The translations under genes and the position numbers were made by a program. Source: Dielma fastidiosa (lineage in GTDB: Bacteria; Bacillota_I; Bacilli_A; Erysipelotrichales; Erysipelotrichaceae). Taken from it: a stretch of 54,955 nucleotides of DNA. Under the pieces are notes generated by a model. It was not told the DNA's origin, ran no database searches, and was given only the letters and a program-made list of their open reading frames with translations. Location: assembly GCF_000313565.1 (NCBI RefSeq), contig NZ_HE578925.1, positions 225,245 through 280,199 on the forward strand, written 5' to 3'. Within the stretch, counting starts at the first letter, position 1; the number at the start of each line of letters is the position of its first letter. Below are positions 43,542 to 53,367 of this stretch, piece after piece.

Positions 43542-45074
43542 ATGGCAGATAAAATTATCGTTCTTGACTTTGGCAGTCAGTATAACCAGCTGATTGCACG
43601 TCGTGTTCGTGAAATGGGCGTATATAGTGAATTGAAATCACGTCATACAAGTGCTGCGGAAATTGCTGCCGATCCTGAAATAAAAGGTATTATTTTTTCA
43701 GGCGGGCCAAATTCGGTATATGATGAGAATGCTTTTAAGGTAGACCCTGAAATTTTTAAGATTGGGAAGCCAATTTTAGGGATTTGTTATGGGATGCAGC
43801 TGATGGCGCATGATTTGGGCGGCAAGGTTGAGTCTTGTGAGCATGCGGAGTATGGCAAAGCGGATATTGAAATTAAGGCTGGCAATGCGTTGCTGAAGGG
43901 TATGGAAAATACTCAGCAGGTTTGGATGTCACATGGTGATCAGGTTACTGCGGTTCCTGAGTGCTTTGAGGTTAATGCTTCTACACAAACTTGTCCAATT
44001 GTTATGATGAGTAATCCTGAGAAGCGTTTTTATGCGATTCAATTCCATCCGGAAGTGCGTCATACAGTTAACGGCACTGCGATGCTGAAGAATTTTGTAT
44101 TTGGTGTATGTGAGGCTAAGAATAACTGGAGTATGAAGGAATTCGTTGATGTAGAGATTGCGAAGATCAAGGAAACAGTCGGTGATGATGAGGTATTGTG
44201 CGCATTGTCAGGCGGTGTTGACTCTGCGGTTGTGGCGGCTTTGCTGCATAAGGCGATTGGTGATAAGCTGACTTGTATGTTTGTTGATCATGGTTTGCTG
44301 CGCTTGAATGAGGCAGAATCTGTAGTAGATACATTTAAGGGACGTTTTGGCATGAATCTTTATAAGATTGATGCGAGAAATGAGTTCATGAGTTTGCTGA
44401 AGGGTGTGAGTGATCCTGAACAGAAACGTAAGATTATCGGTAATGAATTTATTCGTGTGTTTGAACGCGAGTCTGCAAAGTTTACGCAGATTAAGTGGCT
44501 GGCACAGGGAACATTGTATACAGATGTGATTGAGTCCGGAACGGATACCGCGCAGACGATCAAGAGTCATCATAATGTTGGCGGCCTGCCTGAAAATATG
44601 CAGTTTAAGTTGATTGAACCACTGAATACTTTGTTTAAGGATGAAGTGAGAGAGTTAGGTACGCTGCTGGGGCTGCCTGATGAAATTGTGCACCGTCAGC
44701 CATTCCCAGGGCCGGGTCTTGCGATTCGTGTATTGGGTGAAGTGACTGAAGAGAAGCTGGATCTGGTACGCCGCAGTGATGCGATTTTGCGTGAAGAGAT
44801 TGCGCTGGCTGGCTTGGATAAGGAAATTTGGCAGTATTTTACAGCCTTGCCGGATATGAAGTCAGTAGGTGTTATGGGTGATCAGCGTACATATGAATAT
44901 ACGGTTGGTATTCGTGCGGTTACGTCAATTGATGGTATGACTGCAGATTGGGCGCGGATTCCATATGATGTTCTGGATAAGATTTCAAGACGGATCATCA
45001 ATGAGGTGAAGGGCATTAATCGAGTAGTGCTGGATTGTACGTCGAAACCACCAGCGACGATTGAGTGGGAATAG
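43542..45074 (+). CDS. guaA: GMP synthase (glutamine-hydrolysing), canonical
   Basis: Converts XMP, ATP and glutamine to GMP, the last step of guanine nucleotide synthesis. The 510-aa protein has a class I glutaminase domain with Cys82 in GICYGMQ, His169 and Glu171 in FHPE, the ATP-pyrophosphatase P-loop SGGVDS (223-228), and the C-terminal XMP-binding dimerisation domain ending KPPATIEWE. All catalytic residues are in place. I looked for a guanine or other riboswitch in the 80 bases upstream and saw none. Confidence 0.97.
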
Positions 45075-45329: not shown

Positions 45330-45392
45330 ATGAAAATTAGACAGGCAACTGACCTGTCTTTTTGGATAAGAAATCAGGAGGTAATCAAATGA
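45330..45392 (+). CDS. Possible 20-codon leader peptide upstream of the ribosomal GTPase gene
   Basis: ATG at 45330 opens a 20-codon frame that runs through the attenuator hairpin and stops at TGA 45390-45392, overlapping the ATG of the GTPase gene (ATGA). Resistance genes that act on the ribosome are often controlled by such leader peptides. No ribosome-binding site precedes it and it could be leaderless or chance, so this is tentative. Confidence 0.25.
   Translation: MKIRQATDLSFWIRNQEVIK
45339..45363 (+). terminator. Terminator-like hairpin in the leader of the ribosomal GTPase gene (putative attenuator)
   Basis: Perfect 7-bp stem AGACAGG / CCTGTCT, loop CAACTGA, then five T. It lies 26 bases before the start codon and well after the guaA terminator, so it would stop transcripts of the GTPase gene itself unless antitermination occurs. 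Confidence 0.65.
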
Positions 45393-47980
45393 AGCATGTA
45401 GTAATCGGAACTCTGGCACATGTAGATGCCGGCAAGACAACATTATCAGAAAGTATGCTTTATTTGAGTGGGAGTATCCGAAAATTGGGGCGTGTCGATC
45501 ATGGTGATGCTTTTTTAGACTATGACAAACAAGAGAGAAGTCGCGGAATTACTATATTTTCAAAACAAGCTATTTGCCAATGGAAAGACATCGAATTTAC
45601 CTTGCTTGATACGCCGGGTCATGTCGATTTTTCAAGTGAAATGGAACGCACCCTACAGATTCTGGATTATGCAATTTTGATCATTAATGGTGTTGATGGT
45701 GTGCAGACACATACGGAAACAATTTGGAAATTGCTGGAGCATTATCAAATACCTGTATTTATTTTTATTAATAAGATGGATACGGCATATCTAACGAAAG
45801 AAGTATTGCTGACTGAGTTACGTAAACGGTTAGATGAGAGATGTATTGATTTTACAGCTCCATCTGATGAAATGATGGAACAGGCGGCCATGTGTGATGA
45901 TGAATTGCTGGAAGATTATATGGAACATACGATTATAAACAAATCTTTGTTATTAGCTAAAATACATGAAAGAAAGGTATTTCCATGCTATTTTGGTTCA
46001 GCATTAAAAAGGCAAGGCATAGAGACTTTTCTTGATGGTTTAAGTGAATTTATTGTAATGCATGATTACCCTGAGGAATTTGGTGCGAAGGTATACAAAA
46101 TAACTCGAGATGAGAATGGCAATAAGCTGGCACATATGAAAATCACTGGCGGCAGCTTAAAAGTTAAAGCTAAACTGATTGAAAGTGAGAAGGTTGACCA
46201 GATTCGTAAATATTCAGGCAGTAAATTTACTGTGGTTAATGAAGCTATAGCCGGTGAGGTATGTGCGGTTAAAGGACTGCAGAATGTCTATGCGGGCGAA
46301 GGACTTGGTTTTGAAAAAAAATCTGAAAAGCCTTTGCTTTCTTCCTATATGAACTACCGGATGCAGCTGCCTGAAGGCTGTGATGCATTTACTATGCTTA
46401 GAAATTTAAAACAGCTAGGAGAGGAAGACCCACAGCTTCATATTACATATAATGAACGGTTAAAAGAAATCAGAGTTCAGATGATGGGAGAGATTCAGAC
46501 TGAAATATTAAAAAATATCATCAGCAATCGTTTTAATGTTGATGTGTCTTTTGATCATGGTGCTATCAGCTACCGTGAAACAATATTGGAGCCCGTTGAA
46601 GGCGTAGGGCATTATGAGCCATTAAGGCATTATGCTGAAGTGCATTTGCTGCTTGAACCAGGGGATGAAGGCAGCGGTATCCAAATTGCTAGTGCATGTC
46701 CTGAAGATGAACTGGATCGTCATTGGCAGCGGCTGATATTGAGCCATCTTGAAGAAAAAGAGCATTTAGGAGTGTTAACTGGATCACCTATTACCGATAT
46801 GAAGATAACTTTATTAAGCGGTAGGGCTCATCAAAAGCATACTGAAGGCGGAGATTTTCGTGAAGCAACTTATCGGGCTGTGCGTCAAGGGCTGAAATCT
46901 GCCAAATCAATCGTATTAGAACCTTATTTCAAATTTAAATTAGAAGTACCTACAGAATATTTAAGCCGTGCTGTTTTTGATGTTGAACAGATGAATGGGA
47001 GTTTTGTAATCGATGATACTGTCAATGAAATGACGGTACTGAGCGGCAGCGCGCCAGTAGCAAAAATGCAGAACTATCAAAGCGACTTAGTTGCTTATAC
47101 AAAGGGCAAAGGAAAATTAGCCTGTGTGATGGAAGGCTATAAGCCATGTCAAAATCAAGATGTAATCATTGCTGAAGCAGGCTATGATAGTGAAACCGAT
47201 ATCGATAATCCAACAGGTTCAATTTTTTGTTCACACGGCGCCGGTTATTTTGTACCTTGGCATGAGGTAAAGAAGCAGATGCATGTTACAACCAGTTACA
47301 GCAAGACGGAAAAGAGACAGCAAAGTGCCCCGACCAAGGAAATGAAAAAGTTAAATGATGAAGATTTAGATGCGATATTTATTAAGACATATGGACCAGG
47401 AAAACGGCGCTTGGAAAATAATTCAAAGAAAGCTAAAGAAGAAAGTGTTCAAGGTTTGTTGGCCAGTGTGAAACGTCGGCCTTTATGTTATTTGATTGAT
47501 GGTTATAATATTATTCATTCTTGGCCTGAATTAAAGGAACTGGCTGCCGATAATTTGGATGCTGCTCGTTCGAGACTGATGCAGCTGATGGGAGATTTTC
47601 AAGGCTATAAGCAATGTCTGTTAATTCTTGTATTTGATGCCTATAAGGTATCTGAAGGTGTTGGCCAAATGTTTAAAGATCACAGTATTTTTGTAGTGTA
47701 TACGGATCAGGCGCAGACAGCTGATATGTATATTGAGCGGGCAACGCATAAATTGAGCAGTGATTATCGAGTTGTTGTCGCAACCTCTGATGCAATGGAA
47801 CAATTGATTGTCAGCGGTCAGGGAGCACATAGAATGTCAAGCCGCGAACTGCTGTTAGAGGTAGAAGGACTGCGTAAACGAAGACAGCAGGAGTTTGAAG
47901 AAAGTCAGCGAAAGGGATATAATCAGCCACTTGAAAAAATTCGCGATTTATATAATGATGAGTTAAAAAAATCAGATTGA
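45389..47980 (+). CDS. Tet(M)/EF-G-like ribosomal GTPase fused to a Rae1/YacP-type NYN nuclease domain
   Basis: 863 aa from the ATG at 45389 (AGGAGGT 6 bases upstream). Residues 1-about 640 follow the ribosome-protection protein layout: P-loop GTLAHVDAGKTT (7-18), switch-II DTPGH (74-78), NKMD (128-131), then EF-G-like domains II-V with EVPTEYLSRAVFDVEQM in domain IV. A linker of about 50 residues follows. Residues about 698-863 form a YacP/Rae1-like NYN (PIN-like) domain with acidic residues Asp704 (LIDGYNIIHSWP), Asp750 (LVFDAYK), Asp779/Glu783 (TADMYIERAT) and Asp801 (VATSDAMEQ). Bacillus Rae1 enters the ribosomal A site and cuts mRNA, the same region that Tet(M) visits. Joined, the two parts suggest a GTPase-delivered A-site nuclease; the fused function is inference. 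Tetracycline resistance cannot be assumed. Confidence 0.88.
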   Translation: MKHVVIGTLAHVDAGKTTLSESMLYLSGSIRKLGRVDHGDAFLDYDKQERSRGITIFSKQAICQWKDIEFTLLDTPGHVDFSSEMERTLQILDYAILIINGVDGVQTHTETIWKLLEHYQIPVFIFINKMDTAYLTKEVLLTELRKRLDERCIDFTAPSDEMMEQAAMCDDELLEDYMEHTIINKSLLLAKIHERKVFPCYFGSALKRQGIETFLDGLSEFIVMHDYPEEFGAKVYKITRDENGNKLAHMKITGGSLKVKAKLIESEKVDQIRKYSGSKFTVVNEAIAGEVCAVKGLQNVYAGEGLGFEKKSEKPLLSSYMNYRMQLPEGCDAFTMLRNLKQLGEEDPQLHITYNERLKEIRVQMMGEIQTEILKNIISNRFNVDVSFDHGAISYRETILEPVEGVGHYEPLRHYAEVHLLLEPGDEGSGIQIASACPEDELDRHWQRLILSHLEEKEHLGVLTGSPITDMKITLLSGRAHQKHTEGGDFREATYRAVRQGLKSAKSIVLEPYFKFKLEVPTEYLSRAVFDVEQMNGSFVIDDTVNEMTVLSGSAPVAKMQNYQSDLVAYTKGKGKLACVMEGYKPCQNQDVIIAEAGYDSETDIDNPTGSIFCSHGAGYFVPWHEVKKQMHVTTSYSKTEKRQQSAPTKEMKKLNDEDLDAIFIKTYGPGKRRLENNSKKAKEESVQGLLASVKRRPLCYLIDGYNIIHSWPELKELAADNLDAARSRLMQLMGDFQGYKQCLLILVFDAYKVSEGVGQMFKDHSIFVVYTDQAQTADMYIERATHKLSSDYRVVVATSDAMEQLIVSGQGAHRMSSRELLLEVEGLRKRRQQEFEESQRKGYNQPLEKIRDLYNDELKKSD

Positions 47981-48000
47981 CATATCAATTTGATTTTTTA
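47965..48000 (+). terminator. Terminator of the ribosomal GTPase gene
   Basis: A 15-16-bp A/T-rich stem (47965-47980 with 47985-48000) around a CATA loop, ending in a T run, overlapping the stop codon. Confidence 0.85.
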
Positions 48001-48002
48001 TG

Positions 48003-48031
48003 ATGCAAACGCTTACAAAATATGATACATT
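48003..48031 (+). promoter_or_regulatory. Probable promoter of the helicase gene (extended -10)
   Basis: ATGCAA (48003-48008), 17-bp spacer, TACATT (48026-48031) preceded by TGA. The spacer and -10 closely match those ahead of the second guaA (22 of 29 positions over the whole element). About 145 bases of AT-rich leader without another recognisable element separate it from the gene. Confidence 0.5.
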
Positions 48032-48175
48032 ATTGATGCAGAGGGTTGGTATGGGGATATTAAAAATTTACATATTCATAATTTAATTATCTAACTCATA
48101 TTTGCTGCTGAAGGGGATGGGAATAAAGATTTAGTTTTTAGTATAGTTTTTTCATTTTACACATGGGGAGGAATT

Positions 48176-51100
48176 ATGAATACTATTAATGATGTATTAG
48201 ATTATTATATAAATTTTGAGTTAGAGGAAAGATTATATAAAATTGCGATTAACAAAAATAATTATCTAAATTTAAGTAAAAATAAATTAACTGATTTATC
48301 TAGCATAGAATTTTTACTAACAAGTAAGAAAATAACTTTAATTAAGACGATTATAAATGCGATTAAGTTCAAAAATGAAGATAGGAAAAAAGATTTAATC
48401 AAATTATTAAATACGATTGAAAATGGTAGCCTAACATTAAAGGAAGGATTTGATTTTAATAATTTAGTCAGCAAAAGCGAGTATAAATATGGCGATAATT
48501 ATGCAAAAGATAATCTAGAAATTAATAAGATAATAAATGATAATAAAATTTATATCCTTTATCCTGTTTTTGCGTTTGGAAAACAAAAAATACCACTTAT
48601 TAGTTTCCAGGTCGAAATTAAGGATAATAAAATAATTGTAGAAAATTATCGTGTTCAAATAGAAGCATTGAGAACGATTATATCCCAAATTTTATCATGT
48701 GATAGAGCCGATGTAGAATACGCTATGCCTGATTTTGAAAAATTCTATGAAGCGATATCAGTATATGAAAATACAGATATTTTTGAATTGATTACTATAA
48801 TAGAAAATGAATTAATGGGTAAATTTACGAAAGAGTTATTTACAGGTTTTTGGTCGTATAAAGATTATGGTAACTGGGCTGTTACAGAAGAAATTATTCT
48901 TACAATGGAATCATTTGGTGAAATGATTTTACCTCCATATCAGGAAGAAATTGAGGAAGTTAAATTTCATTTAAAAGATAAAAATTCTAAATTGTTAGAC
49001 CAATATTTATTTGGTTGTGATACATCATTATATTCTGAAAACATAAAAATTAATACTCACTACGGTAGTTACACATCAGCTTATCCAATTAATGAAAAAC
49101 AGGCAAAAGTAATTAATAGTTATAAAATCTCTAATTTGTTAGCAGTCAGTGGCCCACCCGGTACAGGAAAAACAACTGTGATTAAAGAAGTCATAGCGAA
49201 TAATATTGTTGAGAAAGCGATAAAAATACTTGGGATTTGGAATCAAAGTTGGGAAAAAATAGGTTGGGATAATCAAGAGGTTTATCAATCTCCATTAAAA
49301 GGTAAATGTGATTATTCTATGCTGATTGCCAGTGGTAACAATAAAGCAGTAGATAATATCGGGTTAGAATTACTTGAAGAAATTGATTATTTTTCGGAAG
49401 CATTGGACACTAACAAAACTGGATATAAAGGAATACTTTGTGCCAGACTTGGAAATCAAGATAATACTGAGAGCTTTAAAAATGATATCCTTAATCCCTT
49501 GATTAATTACTTAGAAAAAGAAACAATCTACGATGAACAAAAAGCGAATGAAACAATCGTTTCGTTTAAAGCGTCTGTAAATAATTTGTTAAGTTTGAAA
49601 GAGACGATATCTGATTTTAGTAAACATCGAGAAATTCTCTGCAATAAAATGTTAGCTTCAAATGTGTTTGATAGAGAACTAGATGAGCAAATAATTGAGA
49701 AAGCGAGATCTAAGTACAATCATGAAGTCAGCATTCTTATTGAAACTATTAAGCAATTAGAAAACAAATTGTCCGCATTAGAAAAAAGAAAAGTTATTAT
49801 AATTAATGAAATTGCTAAAAAATCTAATAATCTAAAGAAAATCAATGAAGAATTAGACAAAAAACGGCAATATGTACAATTAATTGATAAGAAGGCGAAA
49901 ATTATTCTCATAGGTCATTTTCTAGCACGTTCTTTGGAAAATAAATATGGTAGTAGGTCAAGTATATACGAAAATGTAAACTTATTAGAAAATGATTATA
50001 ATTTAGAAAAAATATTGTATAATCAGCAAGAAGCAGAGTTTAATACTTTGGAAGAGCAATTAACCGATGCTCACAATTTATTAGAAAATAGAAAAAGAGA
50101 AATTGATAAGGTCAAGGAAATCTTATTGTTGATTGATGAATTTGAGAAGTTAAAGGATAAGGCGGATGATTTAATCAAACTTGGTTTAAAAGATGTCAAT
50201 TGGAATAGCTCAGAGTATGATTTATTTAATAATAACTACATAGTTCAATTGAGATATGATTTATTTAAAAAATCACTATTGTTAATAAAGTTATACATAT
50301 GTAAAAATGCACGTTATATTCATTTTAATCTTGAAAAAGTATATCCTGATAAATGGTTTCAAGCATTTTATCGACGTGATTTTCGATACGATATTAAATA
50401 TGAAGGGTATCTAAAGGCCATGTGGGAAACATTGTTTCTTTGCTTTCCAGTTGTGACAACAACACTATTTTCATTAAATAGAATGAAATTTCCTTTAATA
50501 CAAGGATTGTACGATACAATATTAATTGATGAAGCTGGACAGTATTCCATACATACTGTTATAGCGCCAATATACAGATGCCGTAAGGCAATAATAGTTG
50601 GTGATACTAAACAAATTGAGCCAATACGAAATCAGAATAATTATGTTATTGAAAATAGCAAATTAAGTGATCAAATGAAACAACTATTTGATGTAAATTT
50701 GAATAGTATACAAAATGCTGCAGATAGGGCAAGTGATGTTTATGATATTTTGGACGATAAAAAAGTTGGAATAATTCTTAATGAACATCGACGTTGTGAG
50801 AGGTCAATTGTAGAATTCTCTAATCGATATGTATATAAAAATCAATTGAAAATTATAAAAGAGGATACTGTAAAGCCGTTTCTTAAATATAGTTTATGCA
50901 TGATAGATGTTAGAAGTGTTGAAGTAAAACGTCATATTAATAATACAGAAATAGATATGTGTGTTAAAATAATCGACAGACTTTTAGCGATATATGGAAA
51001 TGACTATAAGAAAAATATTGGTATTATAACACCATTTAGAAAACAAGCTGATGCATTAAAAGCGAGGATTCCAGAAATAGAATGTGGTACTGTTCATTTA

Positions 51101-51946
51101 TTTCAAGGTCGTGAAAAAGATATAATTTTATTTAGTATTGTATCTGGCGGTACTGATAGTCGAGGTAGTATGAATTTTATTGGTAAACAAGCAAATAATT
51201 TGAATGTAGCATTTACACGTGCTAAAAAGCAGTTAATTTTGATAGGTAATTATGAAGCTTGTGTTAATGCAAAGAATTATATGAGCTTAGCTATGAATGT
51301 TCTGAAAGAAAGCGGTAAATTATTTTCCATTTACGAAGGTGATATCTTTGAGGAAAATAATCTTGAAGAAGGGTACAAAGAACAATTTTACTCTTTGTTT
51401 ATTGAGTCTAATGTAACGCAAAAACTGGTTGATCTCGAATTAGCGAATTATGTTGAAAATGGTTTGATCGTAACACCTCAAAAACATAACCTTTTATTGT
51501 TAGGTGTTCTAACAAAATTAGAAAATTCACTTCGAATAGTCACGCCTTGGATTCGGTCAAGTGTTGTAAATGCTTCATTTTTAGATTCTTTAAGATTATT
51601 ATTGAATGAGAAAAAGGAAGTGAATATTAGTTTTGGTTATCATAAAACAAATTATGATTTGTCTAATATAGCAGCAATAGTAAAGAGGGATAATTACGGA
51701 AGTGAAGAAAAAGATATCAAGAGTATTCAGGAATTGCATGATTTAATAAAAGATCATCTCGAATATATTCCACCTATTCATTGTAAAATTTTAATCATTG
51801 ATGATAGAATCATGATAATAGGTTCACACAACTGGCTTTCAAATTCAGGAAAAGCAATAAATGCAAAAGACGAGATTAGTTGTATAATTTATGATAAAAA
51901 TATGATTCAATATGTAAAAGAAAGATACTTTAATACATTAAATTAA
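48176..51946 (+). CDS. SF1 helicase (COG1112/DNA2-NAM7 type) with C-terminal phospholipase D nuclease domain; Mokosh type II-like defence protein
   Basis: 1256 aa, starting at 48176 after GGGGAGGA. Residues 1-about 310 are an unrecognised N-terminal region. Walker A GPPGTGKT lies at 326-333, a long coiled coil at about 410-680, and Walker B LIDEAGQ with DEAGQ at 785-789. Then come VGDTKQIEP, LNEHRRCE, IITPFRKQ, VHLFQGREKDI and NVAFTRAKKQL, the SF1B helicase motifs. The last 150 residues hold one PLD motif, His1202-x-Lys1204-x4-Asp1209-x6-Gly-Ser-x-Asn1219. A COG1112-type helicase and a PLD nuclease in one chain is the description of Mokosh type II (MkoC), an anti-phage system. The gene is visibly more AT-rich than its neighbours and uses AT-ending codons, suggesting horizontal gain. 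No integrase, IS or tRNA junction is seen beside it. Confidence 0.8.
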   Translation: MNTINDVLDYYINFELEERLYKIAINKNNYLNLSKNKLTDLSSIEFLLTSKKITLIKTIINAIKFKNEDRKKDLIKLLNTIENGSLTLKEGFDFNNLVSKSEYKYGDNYAKDNLEINKIINDNKIYILYPVFAFGKQKIPLISFQVEIKDNKIIVENYRVQIEALRTIISQILSCDRADVEYAMPDFEKFYEAISVYENTDIFELITIIENELMGKFTKELFTGFWSYKDYGNWAVTEEIILTMESFGEMILPPYQEEIEEVKFHLKDKNSKLLDQYLFGCDTSLYSENIKINTHYGSYTSAYPINEKQAKVINSYKISNLLAVSGPPGTGKTTVIKEVIANNIVEKAIKILGIWNQSWEKIGWDNQEVYQSPLKGKCDYSMLIASGNNKAVDNIGLELLEEIDYFSEALDTNKTGYKGILCARLGNQDNTESFKNDILNPLINYLEKETIYDEQKANETIVSFKASVNNLLSLKETISDFSKHREILCNKMLASNVFDRELDEQIIEKARSKYNHEVSILIETIKQLENKLSALEKRKVIIINEIAKKSNNLKKINEELDKKRQYVQLIDKKAKIILIGHFLARSLENKYGSRSSIYENVNLLENDYNLEKILYNQQEAEFNTLEEQLTDAHNLLENRKREIDKVKEILLLIDEFEKLKDKADDLIKLGLKDVNWNSSEYDLFNNNYIVQLRYDLFKKSLLLIKLYICKNARYIHFNLEKVYPDKWFQAFYRRDFRYDIKYEGYLKAMWETLFLCFPVVTTTLFSLNRMKFPLIQGLYDTILIDEAGQYSIHTVIAPIYRCRKAIIVGDTKQIEPIRNQNNYVIENSKLSDQMKQLFDVNLNSIQNAADRASDVYDILDDKKVGIILNEHRRCERSIVEFSNRYVYKNQLKIIKEDTVKPFLKYSLCMIDVRSVEVKRHINNTEIDMCVKIIDRLLAIYGNDYKKNIGIITPFRKQADALKARIPEIECGTVHLFQGREKDIILFSIVSGGTDSRGSMNFIGKQANNLNVAFTRAKKQLILIGNYEACVNAKNYMSLAMNVLKESGKLFSIYEGDIFEENNLEEGYKEQFYSLFIESNVTQKLVDLELANYVENGLIVTPQKHNLLLLGVLTKLENSLRIVTPWIRSSVVNASFLDSLRLLLNEKKEVNISFGYHKTNYDLSNIAAIVKRDNYGSEEKDIKSIQELHDLIKDHLEYIPPIHCKILIIDDRIMIIGSHNWLSNSGKAINAKDEISCIIYDKNMIQYVKERYFNTLN

Positions 51947-51999
51947 TATTTAGGTTCTGTTAATTATTAACCAAGATGCTATGTTTCTATTTTATTAGA

Positions 52000-52028
52000 T
52001 GCAGCGATTGTCAAAATATGGTACATTA
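52000..52028 (+). promoter_or_regulatory. Probable promoter of the second guaA (extended -10)
   Basis: ATGCAG (52000-52005), 17-bp spacer, TACATT (52023-52028) preceded by TGG, 31 bases before the start codon. Confidence 0.55.
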
Positions 52029-52059: not shown

Positions 52060-53367
52060 ATGAAACAAGATATGATTGTAATATTGGATTTAGGCAGCAG
52101 CGATAACACGCGTTTAGCCAGAGAAATTCGTGAATTAGGTGTATACAGCGAGATTTATCCGCATGATATTACTAAGGAGGAATTGGCAAAACTGCCAAAT
52201 GTTAAGGGAATTATTATTAACGGCGGTCCAAATCATATGATTGATGGAGAACGGATTGATGTATGCCATTGTGTATATGAAGCTGGTTATCCGGTAATGG
52301 CAGTTGAACATGAACCAGCAATTTGTGAAGAAAAATTAGCTTGCTGGCCTGAGGATAAGGATGCTCGCACTGACTTGCTTAAAAAATTTGTTTTTGACAC
52401 ATGTCACGCCGAAGCTAATTGGAACATGAAAAACTTTGTTGCTGATCAAGTGGAATTAATTCGTCAGCAGGTGGGTGATCGTAAGGTTTTACTTGCATTG
52501 TCTGGCGGTGTTGACAGTTCAGTTGTTGCGGCATTATTGGTTAAGGCTATCGGCAAACAATTGGTTTGTGTACACGTGAACCATGGGCTCATGCGCAAGG
52601 GTGAGTCAGAAAGCGTTGTTGAAGTATTTAAGAATCAGCTTGATGCCAATTTAGTTTATGTTGATGCGAGTGAAAGATTTTTAGGCAAGCTGGCGGGTGT
52701 CGCTGACCCTGAAGAAAAACGTAAAATTATCGGTGCGGAATTTATCCGTGTTTTTGAAGAAGAAGCGAGAAAACTTGAGGGCATTGACTTTTTAGCACAG
52801 GGAACTATTTATCCAGATATCGTGGAAAGCGGTACAAAGACAGCGAAGGTTGTTAAATCACATCATAACGTAGGAGGACTGCCTGAAGATTTAAATTTTG
52901 AATTAGTAGAACCATTACGTCAATTATTTAAAGATGAGGTACGTGCCTGCGGTTTAGAGTTAGGATTACCTGATGAAATGGTTTTCCGTCAGCCATTCCC
53001 TGGACCTGGACTTGGTGTTCGCTGCTTAGGAGCAATTACTAAAGAACGTCTTGAGGCGGTAAGAGAAGCAGATGCAATTTTACGTGAAGAGTTCCACAAT
53101 GCTGGCTTGGATAAAAAGGTATGGCAGTATTTTACTGTTGTTCCTGATTTTAAATCGGTGGGTGTTAGAGATAACGCAAGATCATTTGAATATCCAGTGA
53201 TTTTAAGAGCAGTAAATACGGTGGATGCAATGACAGCCTCTATCGAACAAATTGATTGGCCGGTATTGCTGAAAATCACAGATCGTATCTTAAAGGAAGT
53301 TGCCAATGTAAATCGTGTTTGCTATGATTTATCACCAAAACCGACGGCAACAATTGAATGGGAATAG
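52060..53367 (+). CDS. GMP synthase paralogue with degenerate glutaminase domain
   Basis: The 435-aa protein is 75 residues shorter than the upstream GuaA, all lost from the N-terminal glutaminase half. The remaining approximately 110-residue N-terminal region still starts like GuaA (VILDLGSSDNTRLARE, INGGPN), but the nucleophile site GICYGMQ is AVEHEPA and the FHPE segment is missing. The ATP-pyrophosphatase P-loop SGGVDS (148-153), [11 protein letters not shown] and the C-terminal KPTATIEWE domain are intact. It should still aminate XMP using free ammonia, or an unlinked glutaminase subunit, or have taken another role. RBS GGAGAG. It has its own promoter and terminator. Confidence 0.9.
   Translation: MKQDMIVILDLGSSDNTRLAREIRELGVYSEIYPHDITKEELAKLPNVKGIIINGGPNHMIDGERIDVCHCVYEAGYPVMAVEHEPAICEEKLACWPEDKDARTDLLKKFVFDTCHAEANWNMKNFVADQVELIRQQVGDRKVLLALSGGVDSSVVAALLVKAIGKQLVCVHVNHGLMRKGESESVVEVFKNQLDANLVYVDASERFLGKLAGVADPEEKRKIIGAEFIRVFEEEARKLEGIDFLAQGTIYPDIVESGTKTAKVVKSHHNVGGLPEDLNFELVEPLRQLFKDEVRACGLELGLPDEMVFRQPFPGPGLGVRCLGAITKERLEAVREADAILREEFHNAGLDKKVWQYFTVVPDFKSVGVRDNARSFEYPVILRAVNTVDAMTASIEQIDWPVLLKITDRILKEVANVNRVCYDLSPKPTATIEWE

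What the first reader, a model, noticed from the sequence alone, without database searches (positions are those of the whole stretch)
48176..51946. Single-gene Mokosh type II-like anti-phage candidate
Seen: COG1112-like SF1 helicase motifs (Walker A 326-333, DEAGQ 785-789, later RecA2 motifs) and one PLD nuclease motif (His1202, Lys1204, Asp1209, Asn1219) in one 1256-aa protein. Known: Mokosh type II is a single protein with exactly this pairing. Seen: the gene is much more AT-rich than flanking genes and sits alone between two housekeeping-type genes. Inference: a horizontally gained defence gene.
Basis: partly seen in the sequence, partly recalled or inferred. Interest (0 to 1): 0.75.

Follow-up and report, generated by a model that had tools for sequence, protein, structure and literature searches.

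The report
Divergent one-gene anti-phage helicase-nuclease candidate
A gut-type bacterium carries a single foreign-looking gene that joins a nucleic-acid motor to a DNA/RNA-cutting domain; it looks like a distant relative of the known anti-phage protein Mokosh type II, so it is a probable phage-defence gene of a known kind, from a little-sampled Gram-positive branch.

Summary
In detail: 48176-51946 (+) encodes an intact 1256-aa protein with SF1 (AAA_11/AAA_12) helicase domains and a C-terminal single-HKD PLD domain. It matches PADLOC MkoC end to end (458 bits, 24-1132 of 1136), and the PLD part models like PLD nucleases. The gene is the most AT-rich of 81 ORFs over about 115 kb (27.6% GC against 41.7 +/- 3.0%) and was found in 1 of 315 genomes of its order, so it is accessory, not a fixed housekeeping helicase. 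Full-length relatives exist in Enterococcus larvae (beside type I restriction genes), a second genome of that family, and beside tandem inovirus prophages; all keep HxK(x4)D(x6)GSxN. Two cautions: the MkoC model also rings for PLD-less helicases (193-502 bits), so score alone is not diagnostic; and the helicase core of this Gram-positive group does not form one clade with enterobacterial MkoC (1520-1696 bits): PLD-less helicases fall between them (AU p 5e-72), so the fusion may have arisen twice or been lost repeatedly. Anti-phage function and an empty site were not shown. Verdict: a divergent Mokosh type II-like member, modest novelty.

The parts
48176..51946 (+). MkoC-like gene, 1256 aa: SF1 (UPF1/DNA2-like, COG1112-type) helicase with C-terminal PLD nuclease domain
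   Evidence: ORF; PADLOC MkoC 1.4e-137 over 24-1132/1136; Pfam AAA_11, AAA_12, PLDc_2
47977..48004 (+). promoter-like TTGACA-16-TATGAT (11 of 12), directly after the stop of the upstream gene; suggests the gene has its own promoter
   Evidence: consensus scan only; 42 sites found in the region against 31 expected, so weak evidence
48165..48172 (+). ribosome-binding site GGGGAGGA
   Evidence: sequence
48176..49075 (+). N-terminal region (residues 1-300) of unknown fold, conserved with the Gram-positive relatives
   Evidence: alignment; structure model unreliable, mean pLDDT 41
49151..49174 (+). Walker A, GPPGTGKT, residues 326-333
50528..50542 (+). Walker B, DEAGQ, residues 785-789
51200..51226 (+). 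RecA2 motif VI, LNVAFTRAK, residues 1009-1017
51524..51925 (+). PLD-like nuclease domain (residues 1117-1250)
   Evidence: Pfam PLDc_2 2.3e-8; model of residues 1035-1256 matches Zucchini, NucT, Nuc at E about 1e-6 to 2e-5
51779..51832 (+). HKD motif HCKILIIDDRIMIIGSHN, residues 1202-1219
   Evidence: conserved in L115, L122, L138, E. coli, Serratia, Xenorhabdus and a phage-contig copy
47993..48032 (+). imperfect direct repeat, left copy (73% over 40 nt with 51989-52028); possible but unproven insertion footprint or shared promoter-type sequence
   Evidence: with 3 mismatches allowed, matches to its core are no more frequent than in shuffles, though the two best core copies flank the gene
51989..52028 (+). 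imperfect direct repeat, right copy

Best explanation
A horizontally acquired, single-gene anti-phage defence protein of the Mokosh type II kind, from a divergent Gram-positive branch. Shown: intact gene, helicase plus PLD domain order, conserved catalytic residues, accessory distribution, foreign composition. Inferred: the UPF1/DNA2-like SF1 motor loads on phage-derived RNA or single-stranded DNA and uses ATP; two chains come together so that two single HKD motifs form one metal-independent PLD active site, which cuts the bound (or bystander) nucleic acid and stops the phage, either directly or by abortive infection.
For: MkoC is the best PADLOC family, covering both domains. PLDc_2 and PLD-nuclease fold support. 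Nearest solved helicases by sequence are SEN1, SMUBP-2, DNA2, UPF1, which act on RNA or ssDNA (family knowledge). The 40% identical full-length relative L122 and 34% identical L115 keep every catalytic residue. L115 sits beside hsdS and hsdM genes of a type I restriction system. A canonical-type relative lies between phage-type genes and an integrase (L127), and E. coli copies lie in islands at tRNA genes beside annotated anti-phage genes or an integrase. Present in 1/315 genomes of the order and 2/105 of the Enterococcus larvae family. GC z = -4.6. The PLD domains of the two groups match each other profile to profile, probability 96.8%.
Against: No phage assay. In this genome the gene is not in a visible defence island, and no integrase or transposase was seen beside it. 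MkoC scores of 193-502 bits are also reached by helicases without any PLD domain, so the HMM alone would not establish membership. Its helicase core groups apart from enterobacterial MkoC (AU p 5e-72). Single-HKD dimerisation is assumed from PLD-family knowledge, not modelled.
Confidence: 0.72

Rival explanations
1. A COG1112-type helicase-nuclease with a cellular role (RNA or DNA repair/processing) unrelated to phages; the PLD domain trims the nucleic acid that the motor unwinds.
For: Nearest solved helicases are eukaryotic housekeeping enzymes; PLD-less relatives are common in the class.
Against: Extremely patchy distribution and foreign composition; relatives sit beside restriction genes or in phage-type contigs.
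Confidence: 0.15
2. The gene belongs to a mobile element or prophage remnant and serves that element (competition between mobile elements, exclusion) rather than the host.
For: Foreign composition; the L122 copy lies immediately beside tandem inovirus genes; the L127 copy lies between phage-type genes and an integrase; relatives of the downstream guaA2 gene sit beside integrase and excisionase-like genes in other genomes.
Against: No integrase, transposase, phage or conjugation gene seen next to it in the window; the L122 gene lies outside the repeated inovirus unit.
Confidence: 0.1
3. A decayed or non-functional passenger gene.
For: AT-rich and isolated.
Against: Full open reading frame of 1256 codons, all catalytic motifs and a good RBS retained.
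Confidence: 0.03

Closest known systems
Mokosh type II (MkoC), enterobacterial form, e.g. E. coli WP_230133882.1 and WP_000344091.1
   Same: One protein, N-terminal SF1 helicase and C-terminal PLD domain with one HKD motif; full-length MkoC model coverage
   Different: 26% identical over the alignment; MkoC score 458 against about 1690 bits; helicase core in a different supported clade with PLD-less helicases between; longer (1256 against 1171 aa)
Mokosh type I (MkoA + MkoB)
   Same: Related helicase and PLD modules (MkoA 159 bits, MkoB 54 bits with its PLD part)
   Different: In type I the domains are in separate genes with a kinase domain (as described in PMC11672841); here one gene, no kinase domain found
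UPF1/SMUBP2/SEN1/DNA2 SF1 helicases
   Same: RecA core motifs, best solved-structure sequence matches
   Different: The match covers only the helicase part; no PLD domain
PLD nucleases Nuc, NucT, Zucchini
   Same: C-terminal model aligns with Foldseek probability 1.00; single HKD motif as in these dimeric enzymes (family knowledge)
   Different: Here the domain is fused to a helicase
Uncharacterised full-length relatives: L115 Enterococcus larvae, L138 (same family), L122 IMGVR_UViG_2711768659
   Same: Same architecture, 34-40% identity for L115 and L122, HKD conserved
   Different: Different chromosomal neighbourhoods

Membership tests
Mokosh type II | COG1112-type SF1 helicase domain in the N-terminal part | tested here: met
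   AAA_11, AAA_12 above gathering score; Walker A/B and motif VI in place
Mokosh type II | PLD nuclease domain at the C-terminus of the same protein | tested here: met
   PLDc_2 34.4 bits against cut-off 27; PLD-nuclease fold match
Mokosh type II | Catalytic residues of helicase and HKD motif intact | tested here: met
Mokosh type II | Matches the MkoC profile over both domains | tested here: met
   458 bits, 24-1132/1136. PADLOC's own cut-off is not shown by the tool; PLD-less helicases reach 193-502 bits, so coverage rather than score carries the weight
Mokosh type II | One helicase clade with the enterobacterial MkoC proteins (an extra test, not part of the published definition) | tested here: not met
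   PLD-bearing rows are not one clade: 0% of 200 bootstrap trees, AU p 5e-72; deep divergence and long branches call for caution
Mokosh type II | Protects against phage | not testable with these tools
   needs a phage challenge
Mokosh type I | Separate helicase (with kinase) and PLD genes | tested here: not met
   single gene; no partner PLD or kinase gene among the neighbours examined
Lineage-fixed housekeeping helicase | Conserved across the lineage | tested here: not met
   1 of 315 genomes of the order

The most novel reading that the evidence does not exclude
The Gram-positive helicase-PLD proteins (window, Enterococcus larvae, L138, L122) are a separately assembled defence family in which a PLD nuclease was fused to a related helicase independently of enterobacterial MkoC, so that 'Mokosh type II' as called by domain pairing or by the PADLOC model is not one family.
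Probability: 0.3. Interest if true: 0.45.

Novelty: new member of a known kind. Interest (0 to 1): 0.3.

Why it matters
It documents a rare Gram-positive branch of a poorly understood single-gene defence, with conserved active sites that make the test mutants obvious. It also shows that the MkoC profile lights up on PLD-less helicases, so surveys that count Mokosh type II by that profile alone may be inflated. [quoted passage not shown] reading that discrepancy as over-calling is my inference.

Tried and rejected
Same-genus or syntenic empty site: no second genome of the genus is held, and in relatives the TetL-NYN gene, guaA1 and guaA2 are not neighbours, so presence/absence at this exact junction could not be compared. 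Scans of genome contigs and viral contigs with the single protein found nothing; a C-terminal alignment with E. coli MkoC succeeded. Plasmid and phage collections gave no full-length relative of the window protein, only partial matches below 60% identity. The N-terminal region could not be modelled (mean pLDDT 41). The idea that L122's gene is inovirus cargo was dropped: the tandem inovirus unit repeats without it. Rfam found no riboswitch or other RNA at the locus. The imperfect direct repeats flanking the gene were considered as a target-site or att signature; the core motif is not rarer than chance when mismatches are allowed, so it is left as an unproven hint. No solved structure of a Mokosh protein turned up by sequence search.

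Full report
Observation. The ORF at 48176-51946 (+) is intact, starts with ATG and encodes 1256 aa; a GGGGAGGA ribosome-binding site precedes it. Pfam finds AAA_11, AAA_12 and PLDc_2, all above gathering scores. There is one HKD motif. The gene has 27.6% GC; 80 other ORFs of at least 150 aa in the surrounding ~115 kb average 41.7% (sd 3.0, minimum 33.1), z = -4.6.

Identity. Against PADLOC the best family by far is MkoC, 1.4e-137, 458 bits, residues 63-1251 against model positions 24-1132 of 1136. I calibrated this. Enterobacterial proteins with the PLD domain (E. coli, Serratia) score 1520-1696 bits. Helicases without a PLD domain, from plasmids and from a genome of the same family, score 193-241 bits and their match ends before the PLD part. 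One PLD-less helicase from a TGA-reading genome of the class reached 502 bits over positions 130-970. So the score alone does not separate MkoC from its PLD-less cousins; coverage of the PLD part does, and the window protein has it.

PLD domain. AlphaFold2 on residues 1035-1256 with four relatives gave a moderate model (mean pLDDT 70.7, pTM 0.70) whose best PDB matches are the PLD nucleases Zucchini and NucT and, further down, Nuc, all with Foldseek probability 1.00. The PLD domains of the Gram-positive and enterobacterial proteins match each other by profile comparison with probability 96.8%.

Relatives. A scan with a C-terminal alignment found Enterococcus larvae (L115, 1259 aa) and an IMG/VR contig (L122, 1280 aa). 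L122 is 40% identical over the full length, L115 34%. A further full-length relative lies in another genome of the Enterococcus larvae family (L138). All three keep the HKD motif and the helicase domains. In L115 the gene is next to hsdS and hsdM genes. In L122 it lies beside, and outside of, tandemly repeated inovirus genes (Rep, Zot). In the order of the window genome 1 of 315 genomes has a full-length match; in the Enterococcus larvae family 2 of 105; in its order sample 1 of 395. The gene is therefore accessory.

Is it the same family as enterobacterial MkoC? [quoted passage not shown]). The window protein meets this. On a helicase-core tree of 23 proteins the window protein, L115 and L122 form one clade (100/99). 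Enterobacterial MkoC plus a phage-contig copy form another, and two PLD-less helicases (L008 from the same family as the window genome, and L050) attach at the base of that second clade with 98-100% bootstrap support. Holding all PLD-bearing proteins together costs 113.5 log-likelihood units, AU p 5e-72. Either the fusion happened twice or the PLD domain was lost in several lines. The divergence is deep and branches are long, so I give a separate origin a probability of about 0.3 only.

Context. Upstream (45362-47980) is an EF-G/Tet-like GTPase fused to a YacP-type NYN domain; before it is a full-length guaA. Downstream (52060-53367) is a second GMP synthase with a truncated amidotransferase part. 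In relatives these genes occur, but not next to one another, and no second genome of the genus is held, so an empty site could not be demonstrated. A TTGACA-16-TATGAT promoter-like sequence directly follows the upstream stop codon, consistent with a single-gene unit.

Mechanism (inferred). The nearest solved helicases, SEN1, SMUBP-2, DNA2 and UPF1, act on RNA or single-stranded DNA. The most likely scheme is that the motor senses or loads on phage-derived RNA or ssDNA and activates the PLD nuclease, which by family knowledge needs two HKD motifs and here would form them by dimerisation. Whether the outcome is direct destruction of phage nucleic acid or abortive infection cannot be told from sequence.

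Verdict. This is a divergent Mokosh type II-like protein, probably horizontally gained, with untested function. The kind is known, so the interest is modest; the patchy distribution, the over-broad MkoC profile and the split tree are the points of note.

Noticed in passing
window 52060-53367 (+): Second GMP synthase (435 aa) beside the full-length guaA at 43542-45074; its amidotransferase part is truncated and the usual catalytic Cys motif is missing. Its relatives are 75-90% identical in other genera, while guaA1 is only 56-68% identical between two of the same genomes, so it is either unusually conserved or horizontally spread.
   Followed up: partly
L085, L086, L087 (genomes G006, G014, G048): In three relatives guaA2 is followed on its 3' side by a HTH-regulator and then excisionase-like, integrase/recombinase or mobilisation genes, so guaA2 looks like an integration site for mobile elements; guaA is known as such a site.
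   Followed up: partly
window 45362-47980 (+): Tetracycline-protection/EF-G-like GTPase fused to a C-terminal YacP-type NYN domain; present in 40 of 60 relatives, so likely a native gene rather than an acquired resistance gene.
   Followed up: partly
L126 (IMGVR_UViG_2711768659_000001): Tandemly repeated inovirus genes (repeat about 6.2 kb; Rep_trans, Zot, small membrane proteins) directly 3' of an MkoC-like gene.
   Followed up: partly
L127 (IMGVR_UViG_2651869879_000008): A canonical-type helicase-PLD (MkoC-like) gene between phage-type genes and an integrase, apparently carried by a prophage.
   Followed up: no
PADLOC model PDLC03924: The MkoC profile gives 193-502 bits to PLD-less helicases that are common in the class, which may inflate Mokosh type II counts.
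   Followed up: partly
L087:1087-4100: Regularly recurring short sequence (reads as HSNFWLDY or FTFQFLVRLY in frame) near the guaA2 relative in G048; looks like a CRISPR array.
   Followed up: no
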